Assembly (NCBI GenBank): GCA_001632435.1
Contig: KV424039.1
Span: 1 to 64,000 of the forward strand
Length of the DNA: 64,000 bases
Reading direction: 5' to 3'
Origin: Calocera cornea HHB12733
Lineage: Eukaryota > Basidiomycota > Dacrymycetes > Dacrymycetales > Dacrymycetaceae
Each line of letters starts with the position of its first letter. Position 1 is the first letter of the stretch. Shown here piece by piece: positions 1,620 to 19,317 of this stretch. The notes below the pieces were generated by a model. That model was not told the origin of the DNA and searched no databases. It worked only from the letters and a program-made list of their open reading frames with translations. A program made the translations under genes and the position numbers.

Positions 1620-1775
1620 TCAGTCACAGAAGGAAGGCGGGTGGCCCACGCAGTACGGCACACATTCGCCGTCTTCCCAGATGCAGTGAGCTGGGAGCGG
1701 TGTGGCCGCTGCCGAGCCGAACATGGCCGCTGTGGCCGCAACGGCCAGAGCGAGGAAGAGGGTGTTGAGCTGCAT
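1620..1775 (-). CDS. Small secreted four-cysteine peptide (family member 1, subtype A)
   Basis: A single-exon gene for 51 residues, beginning MQLNTLFLALAVAATA. Residues 1-24 form a signal peptide with a strongly hydrophobic core and an Ala-rich end. The expected cleavage is before TPLPA, and the remaining 27 or so residues carry four cysteines spaced C31-x6-C38-x3-C42-x7-C50, with one residue after the last. I chose the internal ATG at 1775 because it starts the signal peptide and matches the MQLN start of the decayed relative at 8233-8393; the in-frame upstream ATG would add a non-hydrophobic extension. A TATA box lies 125 bp upstream. The predicted product is exported and perhaps disulfide-bonded (two pairs). 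Function is unknown and no known family is recognised. Five relatives lie in the same 20 kb. Confidence 0.75.
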   Translation of the reverse strand: MQLNTLFLALAVAATAAMFGSAAATPLPAHCIWEDGECVPYCVGHPPSFCD

Positions 1776-2897
1776 GATTTGGGCGTCGATTCTGGCAACA
1801 TTTAGCACCAAGCAAACTTGGTCGAGGGGACTCACGAGGAGCGGGATCGGGATGGAAGAGTCTTAGCCACTTGGTACCGGTGTAAAATATCGGTTTTATA
1901 CCCCGCAGTGGGCTGCGGTCCACCGGTCCTCCGTTGGAGACCGGCGAAATAGTACCGCCGACCCACAGGCGATACAATGATGTTAGCCTGGCAGCGCATC
2001 AGACCATCTCTCTCACCGGCGTGGCCATCTTTGGGTCGGCGAGGACCTGGGTGGAGAAGAGGGATGACTGGTCATCTCAGTGCCCGCTAGCAGCCTAGCC
2101 ACGACGCACGTTCGGCCATTGTTCGGTCCCTATTGGGACACCGCGCTAACGAGATAGGAGAGGTCCCCGGTTGAGTGCGGACTCGTGTCCGCGATATCGG
2201 AGATGAGTGCTTGCTTTGACAGTGGCAAGAGGGTGTGCGTGCCCCCCCCCCCCCCTCTCTCTCTCAGACTCTTCTGGATAAGCGGCCGATGGATGGATCA
2301 TGGAAACCGTCATCAGACCCTTTGTTGATGCCAAGGCCGCGCTCGGGCATCGGCTCTAAGCGAGCGGAGCCGAGGTAAGCGAGGTGATGATGGGCGGTTG
2401 TCGTGAGGAGGGCAGGGAACAAGAATCGCTTGTTCAGCAGGGACGGAGCTAGGTTGGAGGCCGCCTGCAACTGTGCAGAACCGGTGACTGGTAGGATAAG
2501 GGTGCCCGACAGCAGACGCACTGTGTGGGAAGTCATACCGGGGCACGCGTTCTACACTGTCAACCCTTACTTTTCAGTTTCTTTGCACATGCTGTCCTGC
2601 TAGGGAGTTGAAGCAGCGTCGCCACACACCCGATGACTCACCACCCACTCAACCTAGTTGCCCTGCCTGTGCATTTTCACGGGCGTGGTGGCTGTGTTTT
2701 CCCCCTCCGGCTTTAGCCGCGGAGCCGAGGCCCGATCGCTGAGGCCGCTGCCGCTGTCTCGTCTCACCAACGGCCGTGCAGATCGACCAAAACGCGTCAG
2801 CGACACCGGGGCGCTCCAGCTGCCGAAAGCTAGTCATGGCCCAGGCTCATATCATGGAGGACGAGCGAACAACGCGCTTGCCCCTTGCTCGTTGCGT
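1776..2897. other. Intergenic, with a poly-C/(TC)n run
   Basis: Between peptide gene 1 and UVE1. Apart from the TATA box, the main feature is a run of about 15 C followed by TC repeats at roughly 2240-2266. It looks like intron or simple-sequence material because it follows a GTGTGCGTG and ends in CTCAG. I could not assemble a convincing gene around it. The last 250 bp presumably hold the UVE1 promoter and 5' leader. Confidence 0.5.
1894..1900 (-). promoter_or_regulatory. TATA box of peptide gene 1
   Basis: On the minus strand the sequence reads GGGGTATAAAACCG. Its first T is 125 bp upstream of the ATG at 1775. The same motif at nearly the same distance recurs before the other family members. 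Confidence 0.6.
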
Positions 2898-4973
2898 ATG
2901 CTTGGCCTGCTTGCGAGGAGAGGCATCGCACGTACTACACCCCGCCTCGCCGTCGCCGCCACGTCCAGAAGATCAGCCAGCGCGCTAGCGTTAAACACGA
3001 CGATGCCGAAACGCAAGTCCGCCACCGCGACCGACACCTCTCAACCAGCTCCTGCAGAAGAGCAGTCCACCCCCGTCAAGCGGCCCCGCCGGACCAAAGC
3101 ACACGGTGGGATCGAGCACCTTTCAGCGAGGGAGGTGGACGACATCGCCAAGTTCTCCGTGAAGCTGGTTACAGGCACGGTTGTCGCTGAGGCGATCAAG
3201 GTGGAGGAGGTCTCTACCCCTGCGAAGAAGCGCAGGTCGAATAGGAAGAAGACGGATCCTGTGGCCGAGGCGACTCAGCAGGAGAGCACGCCGGCTTCGG
3301 CCAAAAGGAAGCGCACCCCCAAAGCCAAAGCAGCCGTTCCCGCCGAACCAGACACGCCCGGCACCGCAGTATCAATACCTCGCCGTTCCTCCCGCGCGCG
3401 CAAGGTCCTCCCCTCGGATGCGTACGCCGACTGCCAAGAGTCTGCCCCCGAGGACACCCCCACAAAGCGCCGCCGCCGTCGGAAGGCCGACGAGCCCGTA
3501 ACATACGTAATCCCCCCCGTCGAGCGCCTCCAGACTACATTCCACGGCCGCCTCGGCTACGCATGCCTCAACACCGTCCTGCGCCAGCTGCCTGAGCCGG
3601 TGTTCTGCAGCCGGACTTGCAGGCTTGATACGCTGAGGCGGGAGGGGGTGGAGTTTGCCAAGGAGCTGGGGCTGAGGAACGTCGAAGATTTGGGGAAGAT
3701 GATCGAGTGGAATGAGGCGAACAAGTGCGTGCGCTTTCATGTGTCTTGGAGAATTGCGGCGCCAACGGGCAGGCGCATATAGCAGGATACAGAACTGATG
3801 GGAAGAGCAGGATCAAATTCATGCGCGTCTCGAGCGACATGTTCCCCTTCGCCTCCCACGGCGAGCACGGCTACTCCCTAGAGTACGCCGACTCGGCCCT
3901 GCGCGCCGCCGGTGCCCTCGCCAAGAAGTACGGCCACCGCCTAACCATGCACCCCGGGCAGTTCACGCAGCTCGGTTCTCCCAAGCCGGGCGTGGTGGCC
4001 GCCTCCGTGCGCGAGCTGGAGCACCAGTGTGATATTCTGGACCGGCTCGGCGTGGGTAGGGACGGGGTGATGATCATCCACATGGGCGGGGTGTACGGCG
4101 ACAAGCCCGGCACGATCGCGCGGTTCAAGCAGAACTGGCGGGGGCTGAGCGAGAAAGTGAGGGACAGGCTGGTGCTGGAGAACGACGAGCTGTGTTATAA
4201 TGTTGAGGAGCTGCTGCCGGTCAGTGAGGAGCTCGGGGTGCCCATCGTCCTGGATTGGCACCATGATTGGATTTATGTGCGTCCCCCCCCCCCCCCCACG
4301 CCGTCTCAACCCAGGCACAAAACACCGCTAACCGCCACCCAAGCCCTCCTCCCAGTCCCCAGCAGAGCTCATGCCCCGCATCCTGTCCGTCTGGCAGCAG
4401 AAGGGTATAAAGCCCAAGCAGCACCTGTCCGAGCCCAGGCCCGGCGCCGTCTCGGTCGTCGAGAAGCGGGCGCATGCAGATCGGTGTGAGCGGCTGCCGG
4501 AGGGGATGCCGGGGGACATGGACTTGATGATCGAGGTGGGTCGTCCTTCCCATTGTCATGCCCTCGCCTCCCCGCGCGCTTGTGTGGCGTTGGGCCAGGG
4601 AGGGTGTGAGCATCTATCTGATCAGAAGCGCAGGCGAAGGATAAGGAGCAAGCAGTGTTTCACCTGTGGAGGATCTATGGGCTCGAGGAGCCGTTGCATG
4701 AGAACCTCAGGCCGCCTAAGGAGGTTCAGGAGTTGGCGACGAATGGGCGGAAGGCTAGGAAGGTCAAGAAGTGCGTGCCCATCCAACAGCCATTATAGTT
4801 ACGAAGTATGCTGACGGGGCGTGGGTAGGAAGAAGATGGGCAGTGATGAGGAGCATGAGGAGGTCGTCCTTACTGAGCCGGACAAGGAAGGCGATGAGCG
4901 GGTGCTGGTGGATGCCATACCTGGGGAGGAAGGGGCGGAGAGCGAACTGACTGATATGGAGGAGGAGGGATGA
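2898..4973 (+). CDS. UVE1: UV-damage endonuclease (UVDE)
   Basis: This enzyme nicks DNA immediately 5' of UV photoproducts and starts alternative excision repair. Exons are 2898-3724, 3811-4276, 4356-4535, 4634-4770 and 4829-4973; they sum to 1755 nt, giving 584 residues in one frame. Residues 1-35 (MLGLLARRGIARTTPRLAVA onward) are Arg/Ala/Ser-rich and acid-free, like a mitochondrial presequence. A second in-frame ATG at 3003 starts MPKRKS and would give a nuclear form. Residues about 36-205 are a basic, low-complexity, NLS-rich tail. The TIM-barrel UVDE domain covers about 208-530, with LGYACLN, VFCSRTC, IKFMRVSSDMFPFASH, LTMHPGQF, LDWHHDWIY and SEPRPGAV; these carry the family's metal-binding His and acidic residues. 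The C-terminus is acidic. Intron 2 (4277-4355) contains a 15-nt C run after GTGCGT. Mitochondrial targeting by an alternative start is known for a basidiomycete Uve1 and is inferred here. Confidence 0.93.
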
Positions 4974-5695
4974 GACAGCCACCCGCACACAAAACATATT
5001 AGCCAGCACACTGCAGACGGCCGTGACTATAACGCAACAAGCCCTCGAGGCTCTCGTACCACCTCCCAATACTGAGGCGTATCGATAGTCTGTAACAACA
5101 CTTCACTCTTGCATTTTCTTCGTGCCATCGAGCGCTCCTTCGATATCGCCTCACCGCCCTCCCCCACTCTTCACGGCCCCACTCCAAAGGTGGTGGCACG
5201 TGACGACGACCCATGCCAACGGTCTCCAGCGACGCGCGCCGTCTCTTGGGCCAAGCTCTTCTTCCCACAGCCCACAGCGACCGCCGTGACGCTCCTCGCG
5301 GGCCATCAGCCTATCTCTCCTCCAACTGCAATGGACTGTATGTAATCACAGAAGCCTAAGCGGTTAGTATGCCAATCGTGTGAGCGCTTGGCGTCACCGA
5401 GTACGGTAGTCAGGCAGTCAGGGACCGAGCGGTTATGGTATCATCCCTCCTTCCTCGCGTTGGAGTGTTCACGCACGCCTCTGGGCGTCCCCCTCTCCCC
5501 ACTCTCTCTCCCGTTCTCTCTTTCTCCCTCTATCTACTTCGTAAGGTGCTGGTCACTTGCGCTGGACGCCGAGCTGGACGACTAGGATACCCCCTGCACC
5601 GGAACTCATACCACACTCCTCCTTCCGGTCCTCCTGTATCCCTGCCCCACACCCCTGCCCGGCTAACGTCACGGAGAGAAGGCAACCTCAACAGC
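4974..5695. other. Intergenic region between UVE1 and the dehydrogenase gene
   Basis: Presumed UVE1 3' end and promoter/5' leader of the following gene. It includes CT-rich stretches at about 5470-5540 typical of fungal promoters. The dehydrogenase frame is open upstream to 5435, but that extension is low-complexity and not family-like, so I treat it as leader. Confidence 0.5.
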
Positions 5696-7023
5696 ATGTC
5701 TCCCCACCACCCAAAGAAGCTCTCCGCCCTCGGCCACCTGCAGCAGATGTTCCCCCCCTCCCCGACCTTCTGCCCCGCGCGGGACATGCCCCCCCTCCCC
5801 GGCATCCACTGCATCGTCACCGGCGGCACGTCGGGCATCGGCCTGTCCACCGCACGCGCATTACTGGCCGCAGGCGCACATGTGTGCCTCATGGCCCGCT
5901 CGAGCTGGAAGGGCGAGCGGCTCGCTAGGGAGCTGGAGAAGGAGGGCTTCGGGGGAAGGGTCGAGTTCGTCCCCCTGGATCTGGGGGACCTGCGCTCGGT
6001 GCGCTCCGCTGCAGAAGCGTACATGGTGGCACACGACCGCTTGCACCTCCTGATCAACAACGCCGCTGTGCTCCTCCCCGGCGTGCACGGCGCCCAGGCC
6101 GTCTCGGCACAGGGGTACGACGCCCAGTTCGCGACGAACGCACTGGGGCATTGGCATCTGACCATGCTATTGATGCCCCTGTTGAGGGAGACGCTCTGCC
6201 TGCTGCCGATCTCTCCCAGCCCGGCGAGCAGCACGGACAGCCTGCCGAGCCTGACACGCACCGTCGACAGCGCCTCCCCCTCCGACTCACTCGCCTCCCC
6301 TTCCGAGGCGTGGTCGCCCCCCCAGGCTGAACAATCCCCCGCGCAGCAGGAGCTGACAGCAGCGGCGAGGATCGGCGTGCGCGTCCTCACCCTCTCGAGC
6401 AACGTGCACCAGTTTGCACCCAAGGGAGGCGTGGTGTGGTGGGCTATCCAGCCGTCTGTACCCGGGGAGGCTAGGGAGCTCGTGCGCCGGAGGATCGGCG
6501 GCATGGGCTTGTATGCGATGAGCAAGATGGTGCGCCCTTCTTACTTCTTCTCTACTCTGGGAGTGTGCTGACGGGTGTTGGGGCAGGCGAACGTGCTGAT
6601 GTCTCAGTATCTTGCGCGTACCCTGGGGTACACGGGCATCATATTCGCGACCGTCCACCCGGGAGGGATAAAGAGCTCGCTATTCCGCTCCGCTCCAAAG
6701 TGGCAGAACACGCTCACGGTGCGCCACCTTTTTCCTCCTCGCATTATATGCGGCACTATGCTGACATCGGGCCAAGAACTGGATCCTCTACCCACCCGAG
6801 TACGGCGCCCTGACAGCGCTCTGGGCAGCGACGTGCGAGGGCGGAAGGGAGCTGAACGGAAAGGTACGCCTTTTGGCTATGATGCTGTGGCGTCGGGGCT
6901 CATATATGCACGCAGTATTGTATCCCCTGGGCGAGGGTGGGCGCGGCGAGGGGCGACGCGGAGGACGTGGGGCTGCAGGAGAAGCTCGTGGCGCTCATGG
7001 AGGAGATGCGGGCTGGTTTCTAG
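5696..7023 (+). CDS. Short-chain dehydrogenase/reductase (NAD(P)-dependent)
   Basis: Exons 5696-6529, 6587-6718, 6777-6863 and 6916-7023 sum to 1161 nt, giving 386 residues. The Rossmann fold starts near residue 40. It shows the cofactor loop TGGTSGIG, an Arg/Ser in ARSSWKG after beta-2, DLGDLRS, the LLINNAAVL motif, and the catalytic set Ser (LTLSSN), Tyr and Lys (YAMSK). This fits classical SDRs of the retinol-dehydrogenase/WW-oxidoreductase-like type that act on lipophilic alcohols or ketones; the substrate is unknown. About 55 Ser/Pro-rich residues (SPSPASSTDSLPSL onward) are inserted between the NNA motif and the catalytic Ser, which is unusual for the fold and probably a surface loop. 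The start ATG at 5696 was chosen as the first one leading straight into the domain. The tail YPPEYGALTALWA is typical of fungal members. Confidence 0.87.
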
Positions 7024-7639
7024 CAGCTGTATGCGTATGCGCGCTTGCAAGGGCGTTGTAACATTAACCATCAACATGGGTTTGTGGAACTGCGTTTGTC
7101 AAGTCGGGTTCGGTGGCCAACTACAGTAGTTGGTTCACAAAGCCAACCAAGAGCTTGAAACAGCTGACGCGAACCGGAACCGAACGGGCAACCAGTCAGC
7201 TCTGACATCGGTGAACCATTCGGTTGGCCACCTCGGTGTGCAGACCGAATCCGATTGCGTGAAGGAGTGCAACCAAACTGGGACCGAACCCGGAAACCGA
7301 GCAACCTCTGAGATCGGTGAACCAGTTTGGAACCGATTCCAACCCGCTTTCAAACCGACTTCAAATGGAATTCAAGGAGTGGCCTACACATATTCCGCTC
7401 ATCGCATCCGGTCGGAAACTGATATTCCAAACGATTACAGTCTCTCCGCAATGAAAAGAGAAACTCAGTCTATGTCTATCAGTTGATTGTTGATTGATGT
7501 TTCAAAGCCATGAACTTGTAAGGTAGCTGCTGGGAAACTGCAAAGCGGAGTGTGAGCCGCGTCCGAGCGTGGATTGTCTTAGAAATTTGTGCTTCAGAAG
7601 TTACTATCTGATAGGAAATGTATTAGCTATTGTATTATC
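7024..7639. repeat. Intergenic DNA with an AACCG/CGGTT-rich degenerate repeat
   Basis: From about 7106 to 7360 the words GGTTCGG, GAACCGG, AACCGAA and their complements recur every 10-20 bp. A longer unit, TCTGACATCGGTGAACC at about 7201, is repeated with changes at about 7309 (TCTGAGATCGGTGAACC). A similar composition appears again near 19620-19700. I see no convincing gene here; the open frame at 7130-7486 is made of the repeat and has no recognisable domain. Confidence 0.5.
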
Positions 7640-7676
7640 TCCGGCTAGCACATTCGGTCAGCGTCAGATATTCTGA
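7640..7676 (+). pseudogene. Decayed tRNA-like fragment (5' half)
   Basis: TCCGGCTAGC...ATTCGGTCAG followed by CGTCAGATATTCTGA closely matches the first half of the tRNA-Lys gene 100 bp downstream (acceptor strand, A box, D loop and both sides of the anticodon stem). The anticodon loop is cut to three bases and no T arm follows. It is best read as a degenerate duplicate of the tRNA gene. Confidence 0.6.
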
Positions 7677-7739
7677 AAGCCCGAAAACTGCTTCCGTTAC
7701 GTGTACTTGTAACTTCAGAGTTTATGACGAATTGTTACG

Positions 7740-8232: not shown

Positions 8233-8393
8233 TCAGACATCACATTCTTCGGTCGGGTCAGAAGGGCACTTCGGCCCGCAGTCCTCCCCGGTGCAGATGC
8301 GTCGCTCGCCCAGATCGGTGACGAGAACGGGGGACGTCAGGGACGCGCTGAGCAGAGTGAGTGTCAGGACGAGAGGAGGGCGTTAAGCTGCAT
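8233..8393 (-). pseudogene. Frameshifted small secreted four-cysteine peptide (family member 2, subtype A)
   Basis: The ATG at 8393 opens MQLNALLSS and then stops. A shift of one base after codon 8 enters a frame giving VLTLTLLSASLTS (hydrophobic signal core), then a tail with C-x4-C-x3-C-x7-C and a stop at 8233. The MQLN start and the x3/x7 spacing match peptide gene 1. The intact frame has no ATG of its own because a TAA lies just upstream. I therefore read this as a family member broken by a single-base deletion. A sequencing or assembly error is the alternative. A TATA-like box lies 154 bp upstream. Confidence 0.6.
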
Positions 8394-8540: not shown

Positions 8541-8547
8541 TTTTATA
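8541..8547 (-). promoter_or_regulatory. TATA-like box upstream of peptide pseudogene 2
   Basis: Minus-strand GAATATAAAAAGG; its first T is 154 bp upstream of the ATG at 8393, slightly farther than in the intact copies. Confidence 0.4.
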
Positions 8548-8995: not shown

Positions 8996-9163
8996 CTAAA
9001 CACATCCAGAAGCAGGACATGTATAGCAAACGCGGCCCGCCACGCACTCAGTATCCGGCTCTTCTTCCGAGAGGGGCATGGGTGTAGGCGCAGGAGCAGG
9101 GGCTGCCATGGCCGTAGCGAAAAGCGCCGCAACAAGGGCGAGGACGAGCGACTTAGTGTACAT
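8996..9163 (-). CDS. Small secreted four-cysteine peptide (family member 3, subtype B)
   Basis: Single exon, 55 residues, starting MYTKSLVLALVAALFATAMA. The first 20 residues form a classic signal peptide ending Ala-Met-Ala. It is followed by a perfect series of X-Pro dipeptides (AP-AP-AP-TP-MP), an acidic patch (LSEEEPDTE), and then C40-x5-C46-x2-C49-x4-C54 with a single Val after the last Cys. The cysteine spacing equals that of peptide gene 4. The coding sequence is intact. Its 5' leader is interrupted 112 bp upstream by the copia element at 9276-13768. The TATA box that would sit 128 bp upstream in the uninterrupted locus is now on the far side of the element. Expression may be lost or driven by the LTR. 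Function unknown. Confidence 0.78.
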   Translation of the reverse strand: MYTKSLVLALVAALFATAMAAPAPAPTPMPLSEEEPDTECVAGRVCYTCPASGCV

Positions 9164-9275: not shown

Positions 9276-9408
9276 TGTGGAGATCAGAGCAAGAGTGGTG
9301 ACCGTAGGATAGCAAGCCGCGCACCAGATCAGGGTGGCGGACCGTAGCTACTCGTAGACAAGATCCGCGCGTCGGATCCCTGCTCAATCCAATCGCTTGT
9401 TCATCTCA
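9276..9408 (+). repeat. 5' LTR of the copia element
   Basis: 133 bp, bounded by TG...CA and identical base for base to 13636-13768. No obvious TATA box was picked out. Confidence 0.95.
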
Positions 9409-9420
9409 GGTTATGAGCCC
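9409..9420 (+). other. Primer-binding site (initiator tRNA-Met, half-tRNA type)
   Basis: GGTTATGAGCCC directly follows the 5' LTR. Its complement GGGCTCATAACC is the anticodon stem-loop of eukaryotic initiator tRNA-Met, not the tRNA 3' end. Minus-strand synthesis would therefore be primed from an internally cleaved tRNA, as established for Drosophila copia. Confidence 0.8.
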
Positions 9421-9473
9421 TGATCGTTGCTGAACTACATCCAAAGTCACCGTGAGCGATCCAACGATAGATC

Positions 9474-12400
9474 ATGTCGAACGAATCCGACACAGTCACC
9501 ACCGTGAAGTACACGGTCAAGCCTCTCACAAGAGAGAACTGGATCTCGTGGAAGTTCCAGATCCAGTCCGTGCTTGAAGAACAAGACCTCTGGGAATATG
9601 TCACCGGAGAGATCCTGAAGCCGGACCAGCCAGCTCAGAATGCAAGCGCAAGTGAGAAGCAGACAGCCGAGAAGGCCATTCTGGCCTGGAAGAAATCAGA
9701 TCGAAAGGCGAAGAACCAGATCACGAACAACCTTGACGATGAGATCCTCCTAAACGTGATCCAATACGAGACATCGAAGGAGATCTGGGACGGTCTCAGC
9801 ACGTACATGCAAGACCAAGGTCAATTCGGATATGCAGTCCTCCGTCGCAAGATCATGACCACGCACTATGACGACTCGACCGATATGAAGGACCATATCA
9901 GCACACTCCGCAAGCTCCGGATCCAGCTGCAGCAGACCGGAAATGAGATCCAGGATGTCGACTTTGCTTGGATCCTGATCACGTCGCTCCCACCCGATAC
10001 CTGGCGTGACTTTGTGAGCCGGTACAACTCAGTCAAGAACCCCAAATCCGAGGATGTCATATCAGCTATGATCGGCGAGTACACGCTCCGCAAGGAGGCA
10101 TCTGGAGAGGGGGAGCAGGCAAGCGCACTCTACTCAAGGGAGAGAGGCAAAGGATCCAGGGGTCGGGGCGGAGGTCGTGGTCGAGGCACCGGACGAGGTC
10201 AGGAGAAGGACCGATCCAAAGATGAGTGCTACAACTGCGGGAAGGCCGGACACCATGCAAAGGAATGCTATTCCCGCGGAGGAGGCCGAGCTGGCGAGAC
10301 CCCACCATGGCGTCAGAAGAACTCAGATCGAGCGCAGTTCGCGAAGGAGAAGACCAAGAAGACCGATGGATCTGATACCGTGCTCCTATCATTTGAACGC
10401 GCTCAAGACCGGGCGATGCTTGTGAACTCGGGCCAGCTCACCAGATCTGATTGGCTTGCAGACACCGGAGCATCAGCTCATATTGCATCAGACCGTGATC
10501 TGTTTGAAGACTATGTGACGACCAGCACATCACTCTTGGGTCTGGGCGACAAGTCCAGCACCGTCCTAGGTCGAGGAACGATCCGTCTCACATTCATGAA
10601 TGACGGATCTGAGCACAATGTGATCCTGAAGGATGTGCTCCATGCCCCAGATGCAGGCATCAATCTATTGTCGATCCCCCGATGTGATCTCGCTGGAATG
10701 CATACAGAGATAGGGGGAGGACGGCTCATCATGAAGAAGAAGACCGGGCAGATTGTCGGATCTGGCAAGCTCATGAGCTGTAACCTGTACAAGCTCTCGA
10801 TCAAGAGCTCCGACAAGACCAATCGGGTCTATGTGGCTGCATCCGATCACATCATGGCCTGGCACGAACGTCTTGGACACCTGAACATTGGGTACATCCG
10901 ACAACTGATCAGCAAGAGCATGGTCACGGGCCTGAAGGTCAATCTGAAGACCAATGAATGTGTCTGCGAGGGATGCGCGATGGGCAAGCATCACAAGGCC
11001 CCGCTCCCGAACCATGAAGGCCCGCGGACGCGTGTCAGCAAACGGCTGCACAAGATCCACCTGGATCTGATGGGGCCGTTCCCCCCATCCATCGGATCAT
11101 GCGAATATGTCCTATCAATTGTTGATGATGCGACCAGTTACATGTGGATCTACGTCATGAAAAAGAAGAGCGAAACACTCACAATGTTCAAGCAGTTCAA
11201 GAACACAGTTGAGCTTGAGACCGGAGATCAGATCCGGGTCATACAAGCTGATAATGGTGGCGAGTTCATAAACAAGAACTTCGAATCTTTCCTGGCCGAG
11301 ACTGGGATCAAGCTGATCACGTCTGCTCCGCACACCCCAGCACAGAACGGGACAGTTGAACGGAGCCAGCGGACCGTGGTCGAGCACATGAGGTGCATGC
11401 TTGAGGAGAAGAAACTTGCAAAGGGGCTCTGGGCGGAGATCCTGTCAACATCCGTCTATCTGAAGAACAGAAGCCCGGCTTACGGTCTGGAGATCACACC
11501 ATATGAGGCCTATCATGGCCAAAAGCCAGATCTCTCACACCTACGCCAGATCGGATGTCAGTGCTATGTCTTGATCATGGATGACAGCCGAAAGAAACTC
11601 GATCCGAAGTCGCAGAAGTGCATCCTGGTTGGATACGAGCAGAACATGAAGGGCGTGTACCGGTGCTGGGATCCATACACCAAGACAATCCGCAGATCAC
11701 GCAGCGTGATCTTCAATGAAGCATTTACTCAGCGCGTACAGCCAGATCCGCTCATAGAGGTCACCTCCGTCGAGGGGGAGCGGCAACCTCAGAGCGACGG
11801 AGATGACAAGATTGATCGGACCGAAGACGATGAAGTCGAAAGCCTGCTGAATGGACCTCCTGAGCCAGAACAGACCGGACCAAGAGTCCGCCCAAGGATC
11901 GATTATGGACCTGCAACCAGAGTCAGTGCCCGGATCAAGGAACATCGCGAATGGCAGCTTACTGAAGGCGATCCAGCAGATCTGGAGCGAGCCAAGATTG
12001 CAGTCGAATATGCATTCCTATCCATGGATATGGACCGAGACCATGAGGAACCACGATCCTACACAGAGGCGATCCAATCCGAGCAAGCAGAACAGTGGCA
12101 TGAGGCTGCACAGAAAGAGATTGACCAGCTCGAGCAGCGTGGAACTTGGGAACTGGTCAAGCGGCCCAGCAATGCAAAGATCATTGGATCTAAATGGGTA
12201 TTCAAGATCAAGCGCGACAAGAACGGAAAGATCGTACGTTACAAGGGCCGGCTCGTTGCCCAAGGATTCAGCCAAGTTCACGGTGTGAACTATTTCGACA
12301 CATTTGCACCAACCGTCAAACCAACCACAATCCGGATCCTCCTGGCCCATGCAGCAGTTCATGACTGGGAGATCCACCAGATCGACGTGGTCGGAGCATA

Positions 12401-13628
12401 TCTGCATGGCGAGCTCAAGGAAGAGCTGTACATGCGCCAGCCCGAAGGATTTGTTAAGCCAGGATCCGAGAACAAGGTCTGCAAATTGATCAAAGGTCTG
12501 TATGGACTGAAGCAGGCCGGACATTACTGGTACAAGAAGCTCGCCGGAGCTCTTCAAGAACTCGGATTCAAGATCCTCGAGACCGATCGAGCATGCTTCA
12601 TCCGCAAGGATCCGTTCTGCATAATCACAATGCATGTGGATGATGGATGGATCTTCACGAAGACCGGACCTGAAGACATCATCAAGATCAAGAACCAGAT
12701 CAAGAGCATGTTCCAGCTCACGGATGAGGGCGAGCTCCATTACTCGCTAGGTCTGGAGATTAAGCGTGACCGGCGAGCCCGCCAGATCACAATCTCACAG
12801 ACCGGACACATCAAGCATGTCCTTGAACGATTTGGTCTGGCCAACGCAAATGCAACGCGAACCCCGCTAGACCCAAGTAACCCAATCTCAGGACAGGACT
12901 GTCCGGACCTAGAGATCATGTCAGATCATGAACGATGTGAACAAGAAGATCGCAAGGCGCACTATCAAGCCATGATTGGCAGTCTGATGTACATCGCGGT
13001 CATGACCAGACCGGACATTGCCTATGCGGTCCAACACCTGAGCCAATACCTGATCAACCCCGGTCTGGCCCATATCACAGCAGCAAAGCGAGTTTTCCGC
13101 TATCTGAAGGGAACGATCAGCTACAAGATCACGTATGGGCAGATCCAAGAGCTTGTACCAATGCTCTACTCCGATGCAGACTGGGGGAGCAACACAGATG
13201 ACCGACGATCCATATCTGGATATGTGACCATGATCGGAGGCGGAGCGGTCTCCTGGTCCTCAAAGAAACAGCCGACTGTGGCTCTAAGCAGTGCGGAGGC
13301 CGAGTACATGGCTGCGGCCCATGCAGCAAAGGAAGCTCTCTGGATCCGGAACTTCATGGCTGAGATCACTGACCAGGAGCAAGACCGGGCCATCCAGATC
13401 CTAGTAGACAATCAGGCAGCGCTCAGTATGACCAAAGACAGTGCTCACCCAGCACGAACCAAGCACATTGATATCCGACACCATTTCCTCCGCCAACACG
13501 TCTCTGATAACCAGATCTCATTCAGCTACTGTCCGACAGACCAGATGATTGCAGATATCATGACCAAGGCCCTCGGATCCATCAAGCACTTGCAGTTTGT
13601 TGAAGATCTTGGATTGGGCGCGTCTTGA
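9474..13628 (+). CDS. Copia gag-pol polyprotein
   Basis: 1384 codons in one uninterrupted frame. Gag (UBN2-like) covers about 1-220, an RG-rich stretch about 222-245, and the zinc knuckle CYNCGKAGHHAKEC about 250-264. The aspartic protease has DTGAS near 328. The GAG-pre-integrase zinc region contains HERLGHL and CEGCAMGKHH at about 462-510. The integrase core has Asp at about 529 (LDLMGPF), Asp at about 592 (DNGGEF) and Glu at about 628 (NGTVERS). The reverse transcriptase spans about 900-1110, with KWVFKIK, RLVAQGF, LYGLKQA and the active-site box MHVDDG near 1052. RNase H has DADW near 1232 and SSAEAEY. All catalytic residues are present. No frameshift separates gag from pol, as is usual for copia-type elements. 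Confidence 0.97.
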   Translation: MSNESDTVTTVKYTVKPLTRENWISWKFQIQSVLEEQDLWEYVTGEILKPDQPAQNASASEKQTAEKAILAWKKSDRKAKNQITNNLDDEILLNVIQYETSKEIWDGLSTYMQDQGQFGYAVLRRKIMTTHYDDSTDMKDHISTLRKLRIQLQQTGNEIQDVDFAWILITSLPPDTWRDFVSRYNSVKNPKSEDVISAMIGEYTLRKEASGEGEQASALYSRERGKGSRGRGGGRGRGTGRGQEKDRSKDECYNCGKAGHHAKECYSRGGGRAGETPPWRQKNSDRAQFAKEKTKKTDGSDTVLLSFERAQDRAMLVNSGQLTRSDWLADTGASAHIASDRDLFEDYVTTSTSLLGLGDKSSTVLGRGTIRLTFMNDGSEHNVILKDVLHAPDAGINLLSIPRCDLAGMHTEIGGGRLIMKKKTGQIVGSGKLMSCNLYKLSIKSSDKTNRVYVAASDHIMAWHERLGHLNIGYIRQLISKSMVTGLKVNLKTNECVCEGCAMGKHHKAPLPNHEGPRTRVSKRLHKIHLDLMGPFPPSIGSCEYVLSIVDDATSYMWIYVMKKKSETLTMFKQFKNTVELETGDQIRVIQADNGGEFINKNFESFLAETGIKLITSAPHTPAQNGTVERSQRTVVEHMRCMLEEKKLAKGLWAEILSTSVYLKNRSPAYGLEITPYEAYHGQKPDLSHLRQIGCQCYVLIMDDSRKKLDPKSQKCILVGYEQNMKGVYRCWDPYTKTIRRSRSVIFNEAFTQRVQPDPLIEVTSVEGERQPQSDGDDKIDRTEDDEVESLLNGPPEPEQTGPRVRPRIDYGPATRVSARIKEHREWQLTEGDPADLERAKIAVEYAFLSMDMDRDHEEPRSYTEAIQSEQAEQWHEAAQKEIDQLEQRGTWELVKRPSNAKIIGSKWVFKIKRDKNGKIVRYKGRLVAQGFSQVHGVNYFDTFAPTVKPTTIRILLAHAAVHDWEIHQIDVVGAYLHGELKEELYMRQPEGFVKPGSENKVCKLIKGLYGLKQAGHYWYKKLAGALQELGFKILETDRACFIRKDPFCIITMHVDDGWIFTKTGPEDIIKIKNQIKSMFQLTDEGELHYSLGLEIKRDRRARQITISQTGHIKHVLERFGLANANATRTPLDPSNPISGQDCPDLEIMSDHERCEQEDRKAHYQAMIGSLMYIAVMTRPDIAYAVQHLSQYLINPGLAHITAAKRVFRYLKGTISYKITYGQIQELVPMLYSDADWGSNTDDRRSISGYVTMIGGGAVSWSSKKQPTVALSSAEAEYMAAAHAAKEALWIRNFMAEITDQEQDRAIQILVDNQAALSMTKDSAHPARTKHIDIRHHFLRQHVSDNQISFSYCPTDQMIADIMTKALGSIKHLQFVEDLGLGAS

Positions 13629-13635
13629 GGGGGAG
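13627..13635 (+). other. Polypurine tract
   Basis: GAGGGGGAG lies directly before the 3' LTR and overlaps the gag-pol stop codon (TGA). This is the expected plus-strand primer site. Confidence 0.85.
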
Positions 13636-13768
13636 TGTGGAGATCAGAGCAAGAGTGGTGACCGTAGGATAGCAAGCCGCGCACCAGATCAGGGTGGCGG
13701 ACCGTAGCTACTCGTAGACAAGATCCGCGCGTCGGATCCCTGCTCAATCCAATCGCTTGTTCATCTCA
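13636..13768 (+). repeat. 3' LTR of the copia element
   Basis: 133 bp identical to the 5' LTR; followed at once by the second ATGAA. Confidence 0.95.
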
Positions 13769-13782
13769 ATGAACGGGCTGTG

Positions 13783-13789
13783 TTATATA
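13783..13789 (-). promoter_or_regulatory. Displaced TATA box of peptide gene 3
   Basis: Minus-strand TATATAA lies 16 bp beyond the right-hand target duplication. If the element and one ATGAA copy are removed, its first T is 128 bp upstream of the ATG at 9163. That equals the spacing in the paralogues (121-136 bp). It is now about 4.6 kb from the gene. Confidence 0.6.
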
Positions 13790-14462
13790 CTATCTCAGGC
13801 TAAAAGTCCATGTGTACTACTCCCCACTCACCAAAGGCACTGCGGCCGCGGATCTTAGCAGCGTGCCTGTGAGGCGGCGATGATACGCATATTGCTGTGT
13901 ATCATGCTGGCATCCCTGGCACGCGTTACATGTCAGATGGGTGCATAAGTTACTTCCTCGAACTGGAGAAATACTGTAACTGGAGCACACGACGGACCGA
14001 CAAACAGCTGCTAGACCCGTACCGAGCACTTTGAACCCTCTCAAACCCATGCAATGGTAGCACGGTCTTAGAACAGCCAGAACTACAATCAATCCGCGGA
14101 CAAACCTATGCGGTGTAACAAAATCTAAGAAAATCGTTGGAAAGCCAACACGGGTACATTCGCCACGGGCAACAGCGTTCACGCTGATATATGCTAGCAT
14201 TCCTTTATCATCTACAGTATGTGGTGCAGCCTTGACATGTCCAAACACTTGTGCCCATTGGGATACTTGAGGACGAGTCATGCTGCTACATCTCAGGCAT
14301 GCTGTATTCGAAACAACGACTGTGGTCTACATACCGACTGTGGAATGATATGTAGAACACCATACACCACTCCGCAACACCGCCCACAACTTGACGAGGA
14401 ACTTTCATTCTTTAGAAGCTGGCAATTGCCCGGTTTAATCGTTCGGCAGGACAGCTCCCGAG
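13790..14462. other. Intergenic, no gene identified
   Basis: Former upstream region of peptide gene 3 and 3' flank of peptide gene 4. A 154-codon minus-strand open frame (13817-14281) has a Cys-rich patch but no signal peptide or domain that I recognise. Confidence 0.4.
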
Positions 14463-14621
14463 TCAACTGTCGCATTCGTCACCAGGGCAGGTTGCGCACG
14501 TATAACCAGCAGGACAGTTTGTATCAGTCCCAGACTCAATGAGCAGAGCAGGAGCAGGCGTCGCCATGACGCTGGCTACAAGCAATCCGGCAAGGATTAT
14601 GAGGCCGGAATGAAGGTTCAT
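14463..14621 (-). CDS. Small secreted four-cysteine peptide (family member 4, subtype B)
   Basis: Single exon, 52 residues, starting MNLHSGLIILAGLLVASVMA. A 20-residue signal peptide ends Val-Met-Ala, followed by TPAPA, a short linker, and C36-x5-C42-x2-C45-x4-C50 plus two residues. The core pattern C-x-AG-x2-C-x-T-CP is shared with peptide gene 3, so the two are the closest pair in cysteine spacing. A TATA-like TATTTAA lies 121 bp upstream. Predicted to be secreted and disulfide-bonded. Role unknown; candidates include a signalling, competition or host-interaction peptide, but nothing in the sequence decides between them. Confidence 0.78.
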   Translation of the reverse strand: MNLHSGLIILAGLLVASVMATPAPALLIESGTDTNCPAGYTCATCPGDECDS

Positions 14622-14735
14622 GGCTTGTGGAAATCCTGCTTTGCGGTCAGCTTGATGTTGGATGGTAAAAAGTATGATAACGCACTGAATGGTGAACGGG
14701 GGACTTGTGGACGGGTGGAACGCCTCTGTGATGCG

Positions 14736-14742
14736 TTAAATA
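14736..14742 (-). promoter_or_regulatory. TATA box of peptide gene 4
   Basis: Minus-strand GGGGTATTTAACGC, first T 121 bp upstream of the ATG at 14621. The GGGGTA prefix is shared with the box of peptide gene 1. Confidence 0.5.
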
Positions 14743-15054
14743 CCCCTGCAGTTCACAGGGTTTCCTGAGAGTTTCCCCTGGCTGATCAGTAGCGATGCCG
14801 CGGAGCTCGATGGGGTACATTTATTCGCATATGGACCCACGCGACGCTGGCAAGTACAGTCTCGAGGGCCGGCGTACGGGCAAAGCCGTGGGTTTGCTGC
14901 TCCATGCGAGCAATAGCGTACAGCCAGCAACATTCCGTCTTCTCGATCGAAAGACATCTGTAAATTGCTAAGTACACATTCAGGCTGTAAAACAATATGC
15001 GAAAGGCAGGGAATTATACGGAAAGACGCGGATACACCCGTCTGAACTGGCGCC

Positions 15055-15723
15055 TCAGCGCTCGCCCAGCACCAACTCCATCTCCTCTGTCGTTCGTCGC
15101 CGGCTGCTCTCGTCAACCGATGAGCTGAATACGTCCGCTCCCGAAGCGAGAGAGTCAATGAGCATCTCGAGACGAGATTTTGTCATCGAGGGCTCCTGAA
15201 AAGCATAAGTTCCAGGCACCCAAAGCACGACATTCGGCTGAAGTGCGCGCACCTTACGGATCTCGTCCAGATCGTCCGCAAAACCATCCGCGAGGCTTGC
15301 CATCCAATATTTTCGGAACCGTGCCTTGAGTTGCTCCTCCTTCTGCTCTCGATCATCCTGAGGAACGAATGGCGGTAGAGCGGGAGATGGCGGGGATGGA
15401 GAGCGGGACGTGAGCCGTTTTTGTGGTCGACGGGCCTCAGGTCCCGCCTCTGTGGGCAACGTCTCCGCCTCTACATTATCTGTAGCAGGTGCATCCATGT
15501 CCTCATCAGAAGAGTCCGAATCGTCCGAGTCGGTGTCGTCTGAAGATTCGACGGCTGGCAGTGCTGCTTGAACCGGCGGAGGAGCATCCTTTTTGGGAAC
15601 AGGTATCCGGGCATCACTTGCCTCTGAGCCAGTGTCATCGTCAGAGGAAGACGACTCTGACACCTCTCTTCTCTTTCTCCGCCTTGTTCTGCGCTTTTTT
15701 GAGGCAGCCTCTGCTTTGGCCAT
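15055..15723 (-). CDS. RSA3: Ribosome assembly protein 3 (Rsa3-like)
   Basis: 222 residues, apparently without introns. Residues 1-40 are very basic (KKRRTRRRKRREV), followed by a long Ser/Asp/Glu-rich acidic region and a Pro-rich linker. The conserved domain is at the C-terminus: ARFRKYWMASLADGFADDLD followed by EIRK, a further 60 residues including SRLEMLIDSLASG, then the end. This matches the Rsa3 domain, a nucleolar factor of early 60S assembly in yeast. I chose the ATG at 15723. An in-frame ATG 11 codons upstream lies just after a CAG that may be the acceptor of a 5'-leader intron. The acidic/basic N-terminus is typical of nucleolar proteins. Confidence 0.8.
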   Translation of the reverse strand: MAKAEAASKKRRTRRRKRREVSESSSSDDDTGSEASDARIPVPKKDAPPPVQAALPAVESSDDTDSDDSDSSDEDMDAPATDNVEAETLPTEAGPEARRPQKRLTSRSPSPPSPALPPFVPQDDREQKEEQLKARFRKYWMASLADGFADDLDEIRKVRALQPNVVLWVPGTYAFQEPSMTKSRLEMLIDSLASGADVFSSSVDESSRRRTTEEMELVLGER

Positions 15724-15823
15724 CGATGTTTCTGCGTGCTGTACAAGAACAAACACGGCTTGAAGGTGGAATTTTGTTCAGGGCGGACGGAAGCAAATCA
15801 ATATTTTAGGTCCGAATGGGCGC

Positions 15824-16639
15824 TTGAGGGGCGACGGCGCTTCTTTCCACTTCGGTCATCCGTGTCTTGCTAGCCGACGGCCACCCAGCTTTCTATGTCG
15901 ATCTTTACCGCCGCGCTGTTTGGGAGGTTGTGCGCAGTTGTCAAGAGATTCCGTGCTCTGCGTAATTAGACTGGCTCTCAGACCGAGCAATCCTCCGCCT
16001 ATGCCGGTGTTTCGTACGAATTCTGTCTGGAACGCGAATGGTCCTCTCAGCGCGCATGCCTCACCGACGAAAGGGTACCAAACTCCGGATTCCAGGCGCT
16101 GGTGTACAATTTATAGGCATTTCTCTACCTCTACGTGTTCCGCAAGTGTGGGTAACGGCCAGCTCAGGCCGCGCACGGACATCTCCGAGTCATCCCGAGC
16201 TTCCCCAACGCCAGTGGTCGCATCTTCCTTTCTACAGTCTCTCGCTGTAAGTCCAATGTACACAAGCCCCATATTACCGATGTTCTACTACCTTCATATC
16301 TGTGCCGCGCGGCTCGCCGCAGTCACCGAGTCTCGCCCGGAGGATCAGTCGGTCATCCCAGAATGGGTTCTGATGGGCGTTTACCGAGCCGCGACCATCA
16401 TGCGCTGTGGCATTCTCGGCTATACGGCCATGATTTTACTGCGCGCGGCGGCATGCCGTGGCTGCGCGTCACGCTTTACAGTCTGGCTTATGTCGATGTC
16501 ATCGTCCGGGGACAACGCCGACAGTGCTGCGCTCATAGCCTGCCCTTTCTTCCTGTGCTTCTGTACCTTACGGTGTCTGCGGAGTTGTCCGTTTCGAGCC
16601 TGCGGAGCGATAAGCTCTTTGCGGAGATTTGCATCCTGA
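15824..16639 (+). CDS. Uncertain open frame, possibly a decayed or spliced gene
   Basis: An open frame of 271 codons from the ATG at 15824, with another ATG at 15999. The middle (ESRPEDQSVIPEWVLMGVYR followed by a hydrophobic segment) reads like protein with one or two membrane spans. A second plus-strand frame (16363-16812) is also open and equally plausible in its last 60 codons. GTAAGT at 16250 is a good donor, so exons may switch frames. I recognise no family, and neither reading is well supported. Confidence 0.22.
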   Translation: MRGDGASFHFGHPCLASRRPPSFLCRSLPPRCLGGCAQLSRDSVLCVIRLALRPSNPPPMPVFRTNSVWNANGPLSAHASPTKGYQTPDSRRWCTIYRHFSTSTCSASVGNGQLRPRTDISESSRASPTPVVASSFLQSLAVSPMYTSPILPMFYYLHICAARLAAVTESRPEDQSVIPEWVLMGVYRAATIMRCGILGYTAMILLRAAACRGCASRFTVWLMSMSSSGDNADSAALIACPFFLCFCTLRCLRSCPFRACGAISSLRRFAS

Positions 16640-16812
16640 AGCCTTCTACCGACGGTCAAGCTGGCTATAAAGAGGGAGTGCACAAACTTGGTTTCGACGC
16701 AAGCAGTCTCATCGGACCACTTGACATCTCTTACGAACATCTGCCTGTCTCCCACGACCACCGAGTACTATCACCAATCTTACATATTCACAAGGCGAGC
16801 AGCTCTAAATAA

Positions 16813-18000
16813 TGTAAATGGGCCCAACTCATAAAGTTGAACAGATGGTCTCCGCTTCCACCCATCTCGGATTCAGCGCCTTCCTGGCTTTCGCCTTCCC
16901 TTCGCCCTTCACTTGCAATCTTGCGGCCCGGGCGGAGCGTACTCGTCAGCGTAGGGTTTCTAAACAGCTGATCTCTGTTTCTGAGAAATGCTAAGGTATG
17001 ACATCAATGATTTGGAGAGGCTCTGATTGTTCACATATTTGTCATTTGTAGCTGCTTTATCCGATTTCACTGTCGTCGGAACAACTGCAACGACCCCTCA
17101 TGACGCATATCCAATTCAGCTTCTTCGCGAGTCAACCCCTATCCCTTCTATCTTCTGTTTGTCAACGTAGATAGACTTGAACTAAAGAGTCACATTTGAT
17201 TTACGTCCTTTGAACTTGGAAACACCATGCATGAGGAGAAGCACGTGCACAATCACATTCACACGCGAAGTCCATAGCGGGGCAGGTACCCTTCACCCTC
17301 CCCGGAGCCGACATGTTCCCCCCTCGGTTCGCAAGTGGGCCACGTCATCTGTCTCCCGCGGCTTCGTCTTTCCGACACAGCAGCTTATTTTAGTATTTTG
17401 CGAGCCGAGGCAAGCATTCGAACCTCCAGGAGTCCAGGAAGCGAGTGAATGGTAGCTCACCCCAGTCATCGTGTTCCGGCACCTTCATGCTTGCTGTTTT
17501 CGTGGCATGTGTGACGCCTGGGCCCACGTCAGTTCCCGCGGATAAGCAATGGCACTCGAAGCGACTCGTGTACTTTCACGAGGCTTTTGCGGTGTATCAA
17601 TGCTGGATAACTCGAATTCCAGTTCGTCCATAATGCACTCAGCGGGACCGATTCTCTCACGAATTTCCAGAACGAGAAAGTGGATTCAAGGTACGAGAGT
17701 TCTGCGAGCGTTCTCAAAAAAGTATGTTCAAGGCATTCGTTGGACACAATTGACATGCTGTGATTTCCAGAACGCGTGGCGTGGGCGGGCGATATCTTGC
17801 TGGCTCTCAGTAGCGAGCAGGCGCATGCCTTCCACACGCGTGCCTTCAGCTTCCAGATGAACATTCTTCAAGACGATGACTGGACAACATACATTCACCC
17901 AAAACAGAAACGAGTGACTCGTGAGTTGTTACACTATCCCCTGGTACGAGTGCTGTGTAGATGACCCTGCGGCCGGATGAAGGCATGAAAACCCTCTGAT
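16813..18000. other. Intergenic, no confident gene
   Basis: Contains several intron-like words (TTTCCAGAACG at about 17665 and 17767) and short open frames in different phases around 17450-17960. I could not join them into a recognisable protein. Confidence 0.35.
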
Positions 18001-18017
18001 AATAATGATGGCTGGGA

Positions 18018-18023
18018 TATAAG
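18018..18023 (+). promoter_or_regulatory. TATA box of peptide gene 5
   Basis: GGGATATAAGAAGG; first T of TATAAG 129 bp upstream of the ATG at 18147. Confidence 0.55.
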
Positions 18024-18146
18024 AAGGACCAATCTCACCCCCTGGGCCATCCAGCAGCCCGTCGTTCAAAGTGGGGTGTTCGTCTTCTTGACCCAACTTG
18101 CAGGAAACCCGCTGACGATAAACCAGGTTATATTCCTTCCCGAAAC

Positions 18147-18296
18147 ATGAACTTCACCTCAATTGCCCTTGTTGTCGCCATGGCTTTTGCTGCTACCGCG
18201 GTTGCTGCGCCAGCTCCGGTCCCCATCCCCGTCGTGGAGCCAAAATGCTTTGCTGGAGACTGTAGCTGTGAGGACGCACCTGCCTGCATCTGGTAA
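18147..18296 (+). CDS. Small secreted four-cysteine peptide (family member 5, subtype C)
   Basis: Single exon, 49 residues, starting MNFTSIALVVAMAFAATAVA. The signal peptide (about 1-20) ends Ala-Val-Ala. It is followed by X-Pro dipeptides AP-AP-VP-IP, then VVEPK and C34-x4-C39-x1-C41-x5-C47, ending Ile-Trp. The CxC centre distinguishes this subtype. It is closely related to peptide gene 6, 1024 bp downstream, in start (MNF), length, cysteine positions and 3' flank, so the two are a tandem duplicate. It is predicted to be exported; function unknown. A splice donor-like GTAACT at the stop could extend the frame, but the paralogue ends at the same place. Confidence 0.78.
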   Translation: MNFTSIALVVAMAFAATAVAAPAPVPIPVVEPKCFAGDCSCEDAPACIW

Positions 18297-19034
18297 CTTG
18301 AAGAGAGCCTGTGTCGAGTCTTCGCTGTATGTCCTCAACACAACAACATGGCTCATGGACTGACTCAAGTGGGATGTTTTGGCAGAGGACGCTTTCTCAA
18401 CGGCATGGACCTAACCCCGGCGTAGAGATACAATGTGATATAAAGCTCGTCAATGACCCCTATAACTGGCACACCTAGTTATAGAACGACAACCTGTTAT
18501 TGATTCCTCCATATTGCTACTTTACACTTACCCACGGCTCCTGCGCTGGAACGCATCCAGCCGGTTTGAGCTGCTGTCCCCGTCCGAGAACTCGGTTCTT
18601 TCCGTGGGAGATGCGATGTCTCCACTTTTGCATGAGCCAGCATCGGCCACTTAAATGTCGGCCGAATACAGACTTCTGAAGGTACATATCATCGGCCTCC
18701 ATGGCTCCGCAATCCATGTGCAACGTAGTGCTACTACACCAGCACTGGTCCAGCAGCAGGCTGTAATTGGTCAAGAGGGGGGGGGGGGGCATGCAGAAGC
18801 TAGCTTGCTGACTCGAGGCGGTGAATAGAGACATGCTTTCCAAGGCATCCATGCCCATGCCAGAATGATTCCCACGAACTCTTTCTTCTAGGGAATGACT
18901 GGACAACATGCCATCTCCTAAAATGGAAGCAAGTGAGTCGTCGCACGATACGATGGGGCAAGCATTGTGCCGATACGGCTGCTGCGGGAAGAAATATAGA
19001 CACAATCTTCCCCCAAAATAACTCGTCATTGAAG

Positions 19035-19041
19035 TATAAAA
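19035..19041 (+). promoter_or_regulatory. TATA box of peptide gene 6
   Basis: GAAGTATAAAATG; first T 136 bp upstream of the ATG at 19171. Confidence 0.6.
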
Positions 19042-19170
19042 TGTGGCCAGACGAGCCCTCACAGACTACCAGGAATCCCTCCTTTAAAGCAATCTGTTCG
19101 TGCCGTTTACATACGTTGGCCACACAGAAGCGAATTGACCATACAGCAGGCTCCAATCTCAACCCACGCC

Positions 19171-19317
19171 ATGAACTTCAACTCGATCGTCCTTTTCGTT
19201 GCCATGATGTTTGCTGCTGCCACCATGGCAGCCCCGGCTCCCGCTGGTCTTCCCGTTATCGAGGAAAGATGCAACACCGGCGCCTGCGGCTGTGGGGGTG
19301 CCCCTCCCTGCCAGTGA
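19171..19317 (+). CDS. Small secreted four-cysteine peptide (family member 6, subtype C)
   Basis: Single exon, 48 residues, starting MNFNSIVLFVAMMFAAATMA. The signal peptide is followed by APAPAGLPVIEER and C34-x4-C39-x1-C41-x5-C47-Gln. The four cysteine positions are identical to those of gene 5, while most intervening residues differ. That is the pattern expected for diversifying secreted peptides. An in-frame ATG 12 codons upstream would spoil the signal peptide, so 19171 is preferred. Function unknown. Confidence 0.78.
   Translation: MNFNSIVLFVAMMFAAATMAAPAPAGLPVIEERCNTGACGCGGAPPCQ

What the first reader, a model, noticed from the sequence alone, without database searches (positions are those of the whole stretch)
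1620..19317. Dispersed family of tiny secreted four-cysteine peptide genes
Seen: six loci in 18 kb (1620-1775, 8233-8393, 8996-9163, 14463-14621, 18147-18296, 19171-19317) encode 48-55-residue products. Each has a signal peptide, a Pro/Ala-rich junction and a core C-x(4-6)-C-x(1-3)-C-x(4-7)-C within the last 21 residues. They fall into three pairs by spacing: x3/x7 (1 and 2), x2/x4 (3 and 4), x1/x5 (5 and 6). Except for the cysteines and the signal peptide the sequences have diverged strongly. One copy is broken and two are a tandem duplicate. Known: rapidly turning-over, species-restricted secreted Cys-rich peptides often act outside the cell. Inference: this is an undescribed peptide family expanding in an accessory region that also received a transposon. 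Genes this short are easily missed by annotation.
Basis: partly seen in the sequence, partly recalled or inferred. Interest (0 to 1): 0.88.

Follow-up and report, generated by a model that had tools for sequence, protein, structure and literature searches.

The report
Tandem family of tiny secreted peptides
A fungus of the mushroom-and-rust division carries a small local family of genes that look like tiny secreted peptides with four cysteines, lined up in tandem, and a very young jumping gene has landed between one of them and its likely start signal; it seems a real but fairly ordinary kind of fungal gene family without recognised relatives.

Summary
Five intact ORFs of 48-55 codons (signal peptide, four cysteines within the last 15-21 residues) and one frame-broken copy lie in 1620-19317. 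A strict motif scan finds these five, none elsewhere in the 64 kb and none in 60 Markov-shuffled windows. Six cysteine cores ending at a stop contrast with 2 in 176.9 kb sampled from the same 32.1 Mb basidiomycete assembly.

Corrections and additions. (1) Not dispersed: without the copia insertion, loci 2-3-4 form a same-strand array with ATG spacings of 770 and 960 bp; 5-6 are a second array (1024 bp). (2) A TATA-like box lies 121-154 bp before the ATG in 6 of 6 (5 of 6 by strict forms). For gene 3 it lies beyond a very young Ty1/copia element (133-bp LTRs identical, 5-bp target duplication), which separates the ORF from it. (3) Divergence within 5/6 and 3/4 shows purifying selection (pN/pS 0.26/0.58 and 0.40/0.60), not diversification.

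Best reading: secreted, anionic, probably two-disulfide peptides, trimmed through X-Pro dipeptides, acting outside the cell. No credible relative was found in Pfam, NCBIfam, PDB or 5.8 billion proteins. A new orphan member of a well-known class, fungal small secreted proteins.

The parts
1620..1775 (-). Peptide gene 1, 51 aa: signal peptide to about residue 24, TP-LP, core C-x6-C-x3-C-x7-C, one residue after the last Cys
   Evidence: TATA-like box at -125
8233..8393 (-). Locus 2, broken copy: the start resembles gene 1, the frame from the ATG ends after 9 codons, the cysteine tail C-x4-C-x3-C-x7-C lies in another frame
   Evidence: TATA-like box at -154
8996..9163 (-). Peptide gene 3, 55 aa: 20-residue signal peptide, AP-AP-AP-TP-MP, core C-x5-C-x2-C-x4-C; ORF intact, likely promoter cut off by the copia element
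14463..14621 (-). Peptide gene 4, 52 aa: 20-residue signal peptide, TP-AP, core C-x5-C-x2-C-x4-C; nearest relative of gene 3
   Evidence: E 1.4e-4 in the whole genome; E 0.008 in the reverse search; TATTTA at -121
18147..18296 (+). Peptide gene 5, 49 aa: 20-residue signal peptide, AP-AP-VP-IP, core C-x4-C-x1-C-x5-C
   Evidence: TATAAG at -129
19171..19317 (+). Peptide gene 6, 48 aa: tandem duplicate of gene 5, core C-x4-C-x1-C-x5-C
   Evidence: (E 2.3e-11); TATAAA at -136
9276..13768 (+). Ty1/copia-type retrotransposon with identical 133-bp LTRs (9276-9408, 13636-13768) and a 1384-codon gag-pol ORF (9474-13628), target duplication ATGAA at 9271-9275 and 13769-13773; lies between the gene 3 ORF and its likely TATA box
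17864..18509 (+). Unit 1 of the tandem duplication that holds gene 5; outer matches to unit 2: 17864-17922 (76%) and 18478-18509 (84%)
18883..19513 (+). Unit 2 of the tandem duplication, holding gene 6

Best explanation
A family of small secreted peptides in a basidiomycete, so far seen only here, amplified by tandem duplication into two short arrays (2-3-4 and 5-6) plus gene 1. Shown: intact ORFs, common architecture, similar TATA-to-ATG spacing, coding constraint in the two testable pairs, tandem order, and a very young copia insertion between the gene 3 ORF and its TATA-like box. Inferred: each gene is driven by a TATA promoter with a leader of about 100 nt. Signal peptidase cuts after A-x-A or a similar site. 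The exposed X-Pro dipeptides (two to five per intact peptide) are removed stepwise by a dipeptidyl aminopeptidase of the DPP-IV/Ste13 kind. The remaining acidic 21-28 residue peptide closes two disulfides and is released, and it most likely acts outside the cell on another organism (host, prey or competitor) rather than as a structural protein.
For: Motif scan 5 against 0 in 60 shuffled windows and 6 against 2 in 176.9 kb for the bare core. ORFs of 35-200 aa with a hydrophobic start followed by A[AT]PxP: these five and no other in the window plus the 19 fetched stretches. Coding constraint: 5/6 pS 0.58, pN 0.26, Fisher p 0.0009; 3/4 pS 0.60, pN 0.40, p 0.03 (rounded counts); the third codon position has the largest share of differences, 23 of 49 and 29 of 69. 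Genes 3-6 related beyond segment composition. TATA-like box at -121 to -154 in 6 of 6, against 1 of 336 ATG-ORFs of 100 aa or more in the window and 2.8% of 45-bp stretches of 1-20000 without the element. A DPP-IV-type gene is present (two pieces of 148 and 145 bits; two weaker matches elsewhere). Predicted mature parts of the five intact peptides, cut by me, are all anionic, net -1 to -5.
Against: No transcript or peptide data. No relative in another species, so conservation across species is untested. Signal peptides were judged from hydrophobicity and the A-x-A rule, not by a trained predictor. Gene 1 is tied to the others mainly by architecture; by sequence it stands out only against gene 3. 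Gene 4 has TATTTA, not a strict TATA form. X-Pro runs after signal peptides are, from recall, common in fungal secreted proteins, and DPP-IV-type enzymes are widespread, so trimming is a guess. The AlphaFold model is uninformative (pLDDT 64, pTM 0.27), so the disulfides are unproven.
Confidence: 0.72

Rival explanations
1. The peptides are signals between cells of the same species (quorum or mating peptides), matured by dipeptidyl trimming as yeast alpha-factor is (recalled), and not weapons or effectors.
For: X-Pro dipeptides right behind the predicted signal peptidase site in 5 of 5 intact copies; purifying rather than diversifying selection; small acidic product; a secreted signal peptide, Qsp1, is described from Cryptococcus (PMC7537855, abstract start seen in search listing).
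Against: Several divergent cysteine frameworks side by side fit a single signal-receptor pair poorly; no repeats of the product within a precursor; no mating-type or receptor gene among the 11 other ORFs scanned against Pfam, which are not all genes of the window.
Confidence: 0.15
2. Secreted metal-binding peptides (four cysteines plus acidic residues) that scavenge zinc or copper.
For: C-x-C, C-x2-C and C-x3-C pairs, acidic residues around them, all five mature parts anionic.
Against: Cysteines passing through the secretory pathway normally become disulfides (recalled); no metallothionein model among the Pfam matches; no metal-related gene among the ORFs scanned.
Confidence: 0.06
3. Antimicrobial peptides against bacteria or other fungi.
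For: Size, secretion, disulfide-type cores, tandem amplification.
Against: All five predicted mature peptides are anionic (net -1 to -5), whereas typical defensin-like or antifungal peptides are cationic (recalled); no credible match to such a family (the closest is a Pfam 'Fungus-induced protein' at E 0.73 for gene 6).
Confidence: 0.12
4. Not genes: chance ORFs or relics of a single decayed gene.
For: No homologue found outside the locus; one copy is broken and one has probably lost its promoter.
Against: 0 of 60 shuffled windows give even one such ORF; substitution pattern of coding DNA; shared TATA spacing.
Confidence: 0.05

Closest known systems
Orphan fungal small secreted proteins (SSPs), PMC7105643 (abstract start seen in listing)
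   Same: Short, signal peptide, no known domain, no relatives found; [quoted passage not shown]
   Different: At 48-55 residues far below the 300-residue limit given there; four cysteines only, all within the last 21 residues; X-Pro run; similar TATA spacing
Clustered secreted-protein genes of the smut Ustilago maydis such as mig2 (recalled; papers seen only as a listing)
   Same: Basidiomycete, tandem arrays of small secreted cysteine-containing proteins (recalled)
   Different: Those proteins are longer and have more cysteines (recalled); not compared here by sequence beyond the general searches; expression in a host is unknown here
Qsp1 of Cryptococcus neoformans (PMC7537855, abstract start seen in listing)
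   Same: Small secreted basidiomycete peptide
   Different: Described there as a quorum-sensing peptide that is imported to act inside the cell; no cysteine-framework family or tandem array is known to me for it
IGY-motif SSP family of Dikarya (PMC4367982, title and abstract start seen in listing)
   Same: Expansion of small secreted proteins in a fungus
   Different: Defined by an N-terminal IGY motif, which none of the six loci has in any frame of its coding strand

Membership tests
Fungal small secreted proteins (broad class) | Under 300 residues with a signal peptide (as in the abstract of PMC7105643) | tested here: met
   48-55 aa, hydrophobic start and A-x-A-like site in five intact copies; no trained signal-peptide predictor was run
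Fungal small secreted proteins (broad class) | Mostly no known domain | tested here: met
   Pfam: nothing over a cut-off, best E 0.072; NCBIfam: best E 0.023, one of five members
Effector | Made during contact with another organism and changing it | not testable with these tools
   No expression or assay data
Hydrophobins / CFEM proteins | Eight cysteines in set spacing (recalled) | tested here: not met
   Four cysteines; no Pfam match
Basidiomycete lipopeptide mating pheromones | C-terminal CAAX box, no signal peptide (recalled) | tested here: not met
   Last Cys followed by 1-2 residues; signal peptide present
Cysteine-stabilised defensins and antifungal proteins (AFP/PAF type) | Six or more cysteines, usually cationic (recalled) | tested here: not met
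   Four cysteines, net charge -1 to -5, no credible match in Pfam or PDB
One homologous family (all six loci) | Sequence similarity beyond composition | tested here: inconclusive
   Met for pairs among genes 3, 4, 5, 6 (0-1 of 500 segment shuffles; with Cys fixed 0-1, but 18 of 500 for 4-5); gene 1 with gene 3 only (4 and 1 of 500; with 4, 5 and 6: 75, 52 and 24 of 500); locus 2 tail with 1 and 4 at 8 and 13 of 1000, with 3, 5 and 6 at over 600 of 1000

The most novel reading that the evidence does not exclude
A new class of basidiomycete peptide messengers or weapons: 21-28 residue, acidic, two-disulfide peptides released by X-Pro dipeptide trimming, in three cysteine frameworks derived from one ancestor, under one promoter design, and caught in the act of losing a member to a transposon that separates its ORF from its TATA box.
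Probability: 0.15. Interest if true: 0.65.

Novelty: new member of a known kind. Interest (0 to 1): 0.42.

Why it matters
Genes of about 50 codons are easily left out of fungal annotation, and this case suggests that they can be recognised from DNA alone by architecture, promoter spacing and substitution pattern. If the peptides are secreted as predicted, they are a ready-made set of natural variants of one scaffold with three cysteine frameworks. The young insertion gives a natural promoter-loss test within one array: gene 3 against gene 4.

Tried and rejected
Relatives elsewhere in the genome: protein searches with all five intact peptides found only the local copies and one further match, C23:162982 (E 0.011). 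That one was rejected as chance: the matched frame is an Ala/Pro-rich stretch with one cysteine, antisense to a 652-codon open frame (my first look read only the other strand). The first look of that search is coarse: it did not join 5/6 with 3/4, nor gene 1 with locus 2, so distant copies could be missed.

Relatives in other species: a profile search over 5.8 billion proteins returned one hit, the window's own gene 4 product (52 aa); it needs shared 5-residue words, and short unannotated genes are not in protein collections. Two searches meant to name the organism (best 120 of 244 and of 446 hits listed, length-limited) fit a basidiomycete without a close named relative (best named hits 66-67% and 59-61% identity; one unnamed metagenome protein 79%). 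The species stays unknown.

Structure: the model from A1 is too poor to use; no fold search was made. PDB sequence search gave nothing credible (best E 0.32 cytochrome c, then 5.2 and 7.3; none).

A seventh copy at 19751 (core C-x5-C-x1-C-x5-C) was rejected: no signal-like start found, and about 0.7 such matches are expected in 64 kb at the rate of the sampled stretches.

Global identity of the 5/6 upstream flanks is uninformative, since shuffled sequence gives the same 0.62; only the local matches and the local score (48 against a shuffled maximum of 29) were used. For genes 3 and 4 no flanking similarity remains. In one search genes 1 and 6 also score above the shuffles (34 against 28); not followed up.

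AA9 oxidases: none found in the genome, but nothing rang in the control genomes either, so no conclusion. Searches for papers naming the assembly gave nothing useful, nor did one on dipeptidyl trimming of fungal peptides.
Full report
What the window is. The window is the first 64,000 bases of a 99,945-base contig in a 32.1 Mb assembly of 302 contigs. Its UvdE and nucleolin-like genes have mostly basidiomycete proteins among their best named matches, none of them close. In 2-kb bins, 1-20000 has 52-57% G+C apart from 2001-6000 (62%); of the 22 bins after it, 18 have 59% or more. The peptide genes alternate with ordinary genes: UvdE (pieces within 2658-4489), a short-chain dehydrogenase (5435-6571), Rsa3 (15055-15756) and a GRC3/NOL9-type kinase (21020-23260). 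So this is not an island of accessory genes only.

The observation. ATG-to-stop ORFs of 35-90 codons were tested for a hydrophobic start, a small-x-small cleavage site and a four-cysteine end. The five intact loci pass, nothing else in the 64 kb passes, and none of 60 order-2 Markov windows gives any. Without asking for a signal peptide, the core followed by a stop occurs seven times in the window, six of them the reported loci, and twice in 176,900 readable bases from 19 stretches of the same genome. A hydrophobic start followed by A[AT]PxP in an ORF of 35-200 codons occurs five times in window plus stretches: the same five. The looser form, a hydrophobic start with three or more later cysteines, is common: 12 distinct ORFs in the stretches and 7 in the window. 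The 19 stretches are the rest of this contig (with 4,000 bases of overlap) and one each from 15 other contigs, one of which reads N throughout; together they are about half a percent of the genome. They show that such genes are rare, not that they are absent elsewhere.

One family. Genes 3, 4, 5 and 6 have a predicted signal peptide of 20 residues, ending AMA, VMA, AVA and TMA, and then AP or TP pairs (sequences). Segment-wise shuffles that keep signal and mature composition apart are reached 0 of 500 times for pairs 3-4, 5-6, 3-5, 3-6 and 4-6 and 1 of 500 for 4-5. With cysteines held in place the counts are 0, 0, 0, 1, 0 and 18. Gene 1 is close only to gene 3 (4 and 1 of 500); against 4, 5 and 6 it is reached 75, 52 and 24 times.

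Tandem, not dispersed. Loci 2, 3 and 4 are on the same strand. The copia element plus one copy of its target duplication takes up 4,498 bases. Without it the ATG-to-ATG distances are 770 and 960; for 5-6 it is 1,024. The 5/6 units still share flanking blocks (59 nt at 76% and 32 nt at 84%).

A common promoter design. A TATA-like box lies at -125 (1), -154 (2), -121 (4, TATTTA), -129 (5) and -136 (6). For gene 3 the search over the joined flanks put one at -128, on the far side of the element; a second, at -23, lies on the near side. Controls: 1 of 336 ATG-ORFs of 100 codons or more in the window, many of them nested or spurious, has such a box at -160 to -115, and 2.8% of 45-bp stretches in 1-20000 without the element. 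The motif came out first among 222 8-mers shared, with one mismatch, by the six upstream regions, so the choice was partly after the fact, and TATTTA was admitted to include gene 4; with strict TATA forms it is 5 of 6. Two LTRs of 133 bp, fully identical, and the duplication ATGAA show a very young insertion. Inference: gene 3 has an intact ORF but has lost its normal promoter. The box at -23, or the LTR, might still drive it.

Selection. For 5/6, pS is 0.58 and pN 0.26 (Fisher p 0.0009); for 3/4, 0.60 and 0.40 (p 0.03). Differences by codon position are 14, 12, 23 and 20, 20, 29. In the part after the signal peptide pN/pS is 0.31/0.63 (5/6) and 0.37/0.68 (3/4). These are Nei-Gojobori counts on about 50 codons with dS above 1, so only the direction is safe: constraint, not neutral drift, and no sign of diversifying selection on average. 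Orthologues were not available.

How it probably works. From the anatomy: secretion, removal of the signal peptide, then loss of the X-Pro pairs (TP-LP; AP-AP-AP-TP-MP; TP-AP; AP-AP-VP-IP; AP-AP for genes 1, 3, 4, 5, 6) by a dipeptidyl aminopeptidase. A DPP-IV-type gene is present on contig C31; such genes are widespread (recalled), so this is permissive only. The resulting peptides have 21-28 residues and net charges of -4, -4, -5, -3 and -1 for genes 1, 3, 4, 5 and 6. Two disulfides are the simplest state for four cysteines in a secreted chain. Action outside the cell on another organism is the most likely use given local duplication, several cysteine frameworks and loss of members, but nothing here tests it. 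A signal within the species is the main rival.

Compared with what is known. No Pfam model reached its cut-off and no NCBIfam match was credible; no PDB sequence and no protein in the 5.8 billion search is a credible relative. By class they are small secreted proteins. An abstract (PMC7105643, start seen in the listing) says that most such proteins are coded by orphan genes. That makes the find a new member of a known kind. What is less usual, to my knowledge, is the very small size, the similar promoter spacing, and the snapshot of promoter loss by a transposon. Whether this family has been described in print was not settled; the searches made were made, all seen as listings only, and the organism is not known.

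Noticed in passing
9276-13768: Complete-looking Ty1/copia element: identical 133-bp LTRs, ATGAA target duplication, one 1384-codon ORF with gag, integrase and reverse transcriptase domains.
   Followed up: partly
1-320: The contig begins in a dispersed repeat with 43 matches listed in the genome (this one included), 90-100% identical, 13 of them within 2 kb of a contig start; it may have broken the assembly here, so the peptide family may continue on an unlinked contig.
   Followed up: partly
7740-7827: tRNA gene with a four-base anticodon call (atgc) and a length of 88 bases that may mean a short intron.
   Followed up: no
19751-19800: A C-x5-C-x1-C-x5-C frame ending at a stop, without a signal-like start, about 430 bp behind gene 6; taken as chance.
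   Followed up: partly
7185-7324: Two 34-nt direct repeats 106 bp apart (76% identical) between the dehydrogenase gene and the tRNA.
   Followed up: no
L031, L032 (contig C31): DPP-IV-type peptidase gene in two open pieces, a candidate for trimming X-Pro pairs.
   Followed up: no
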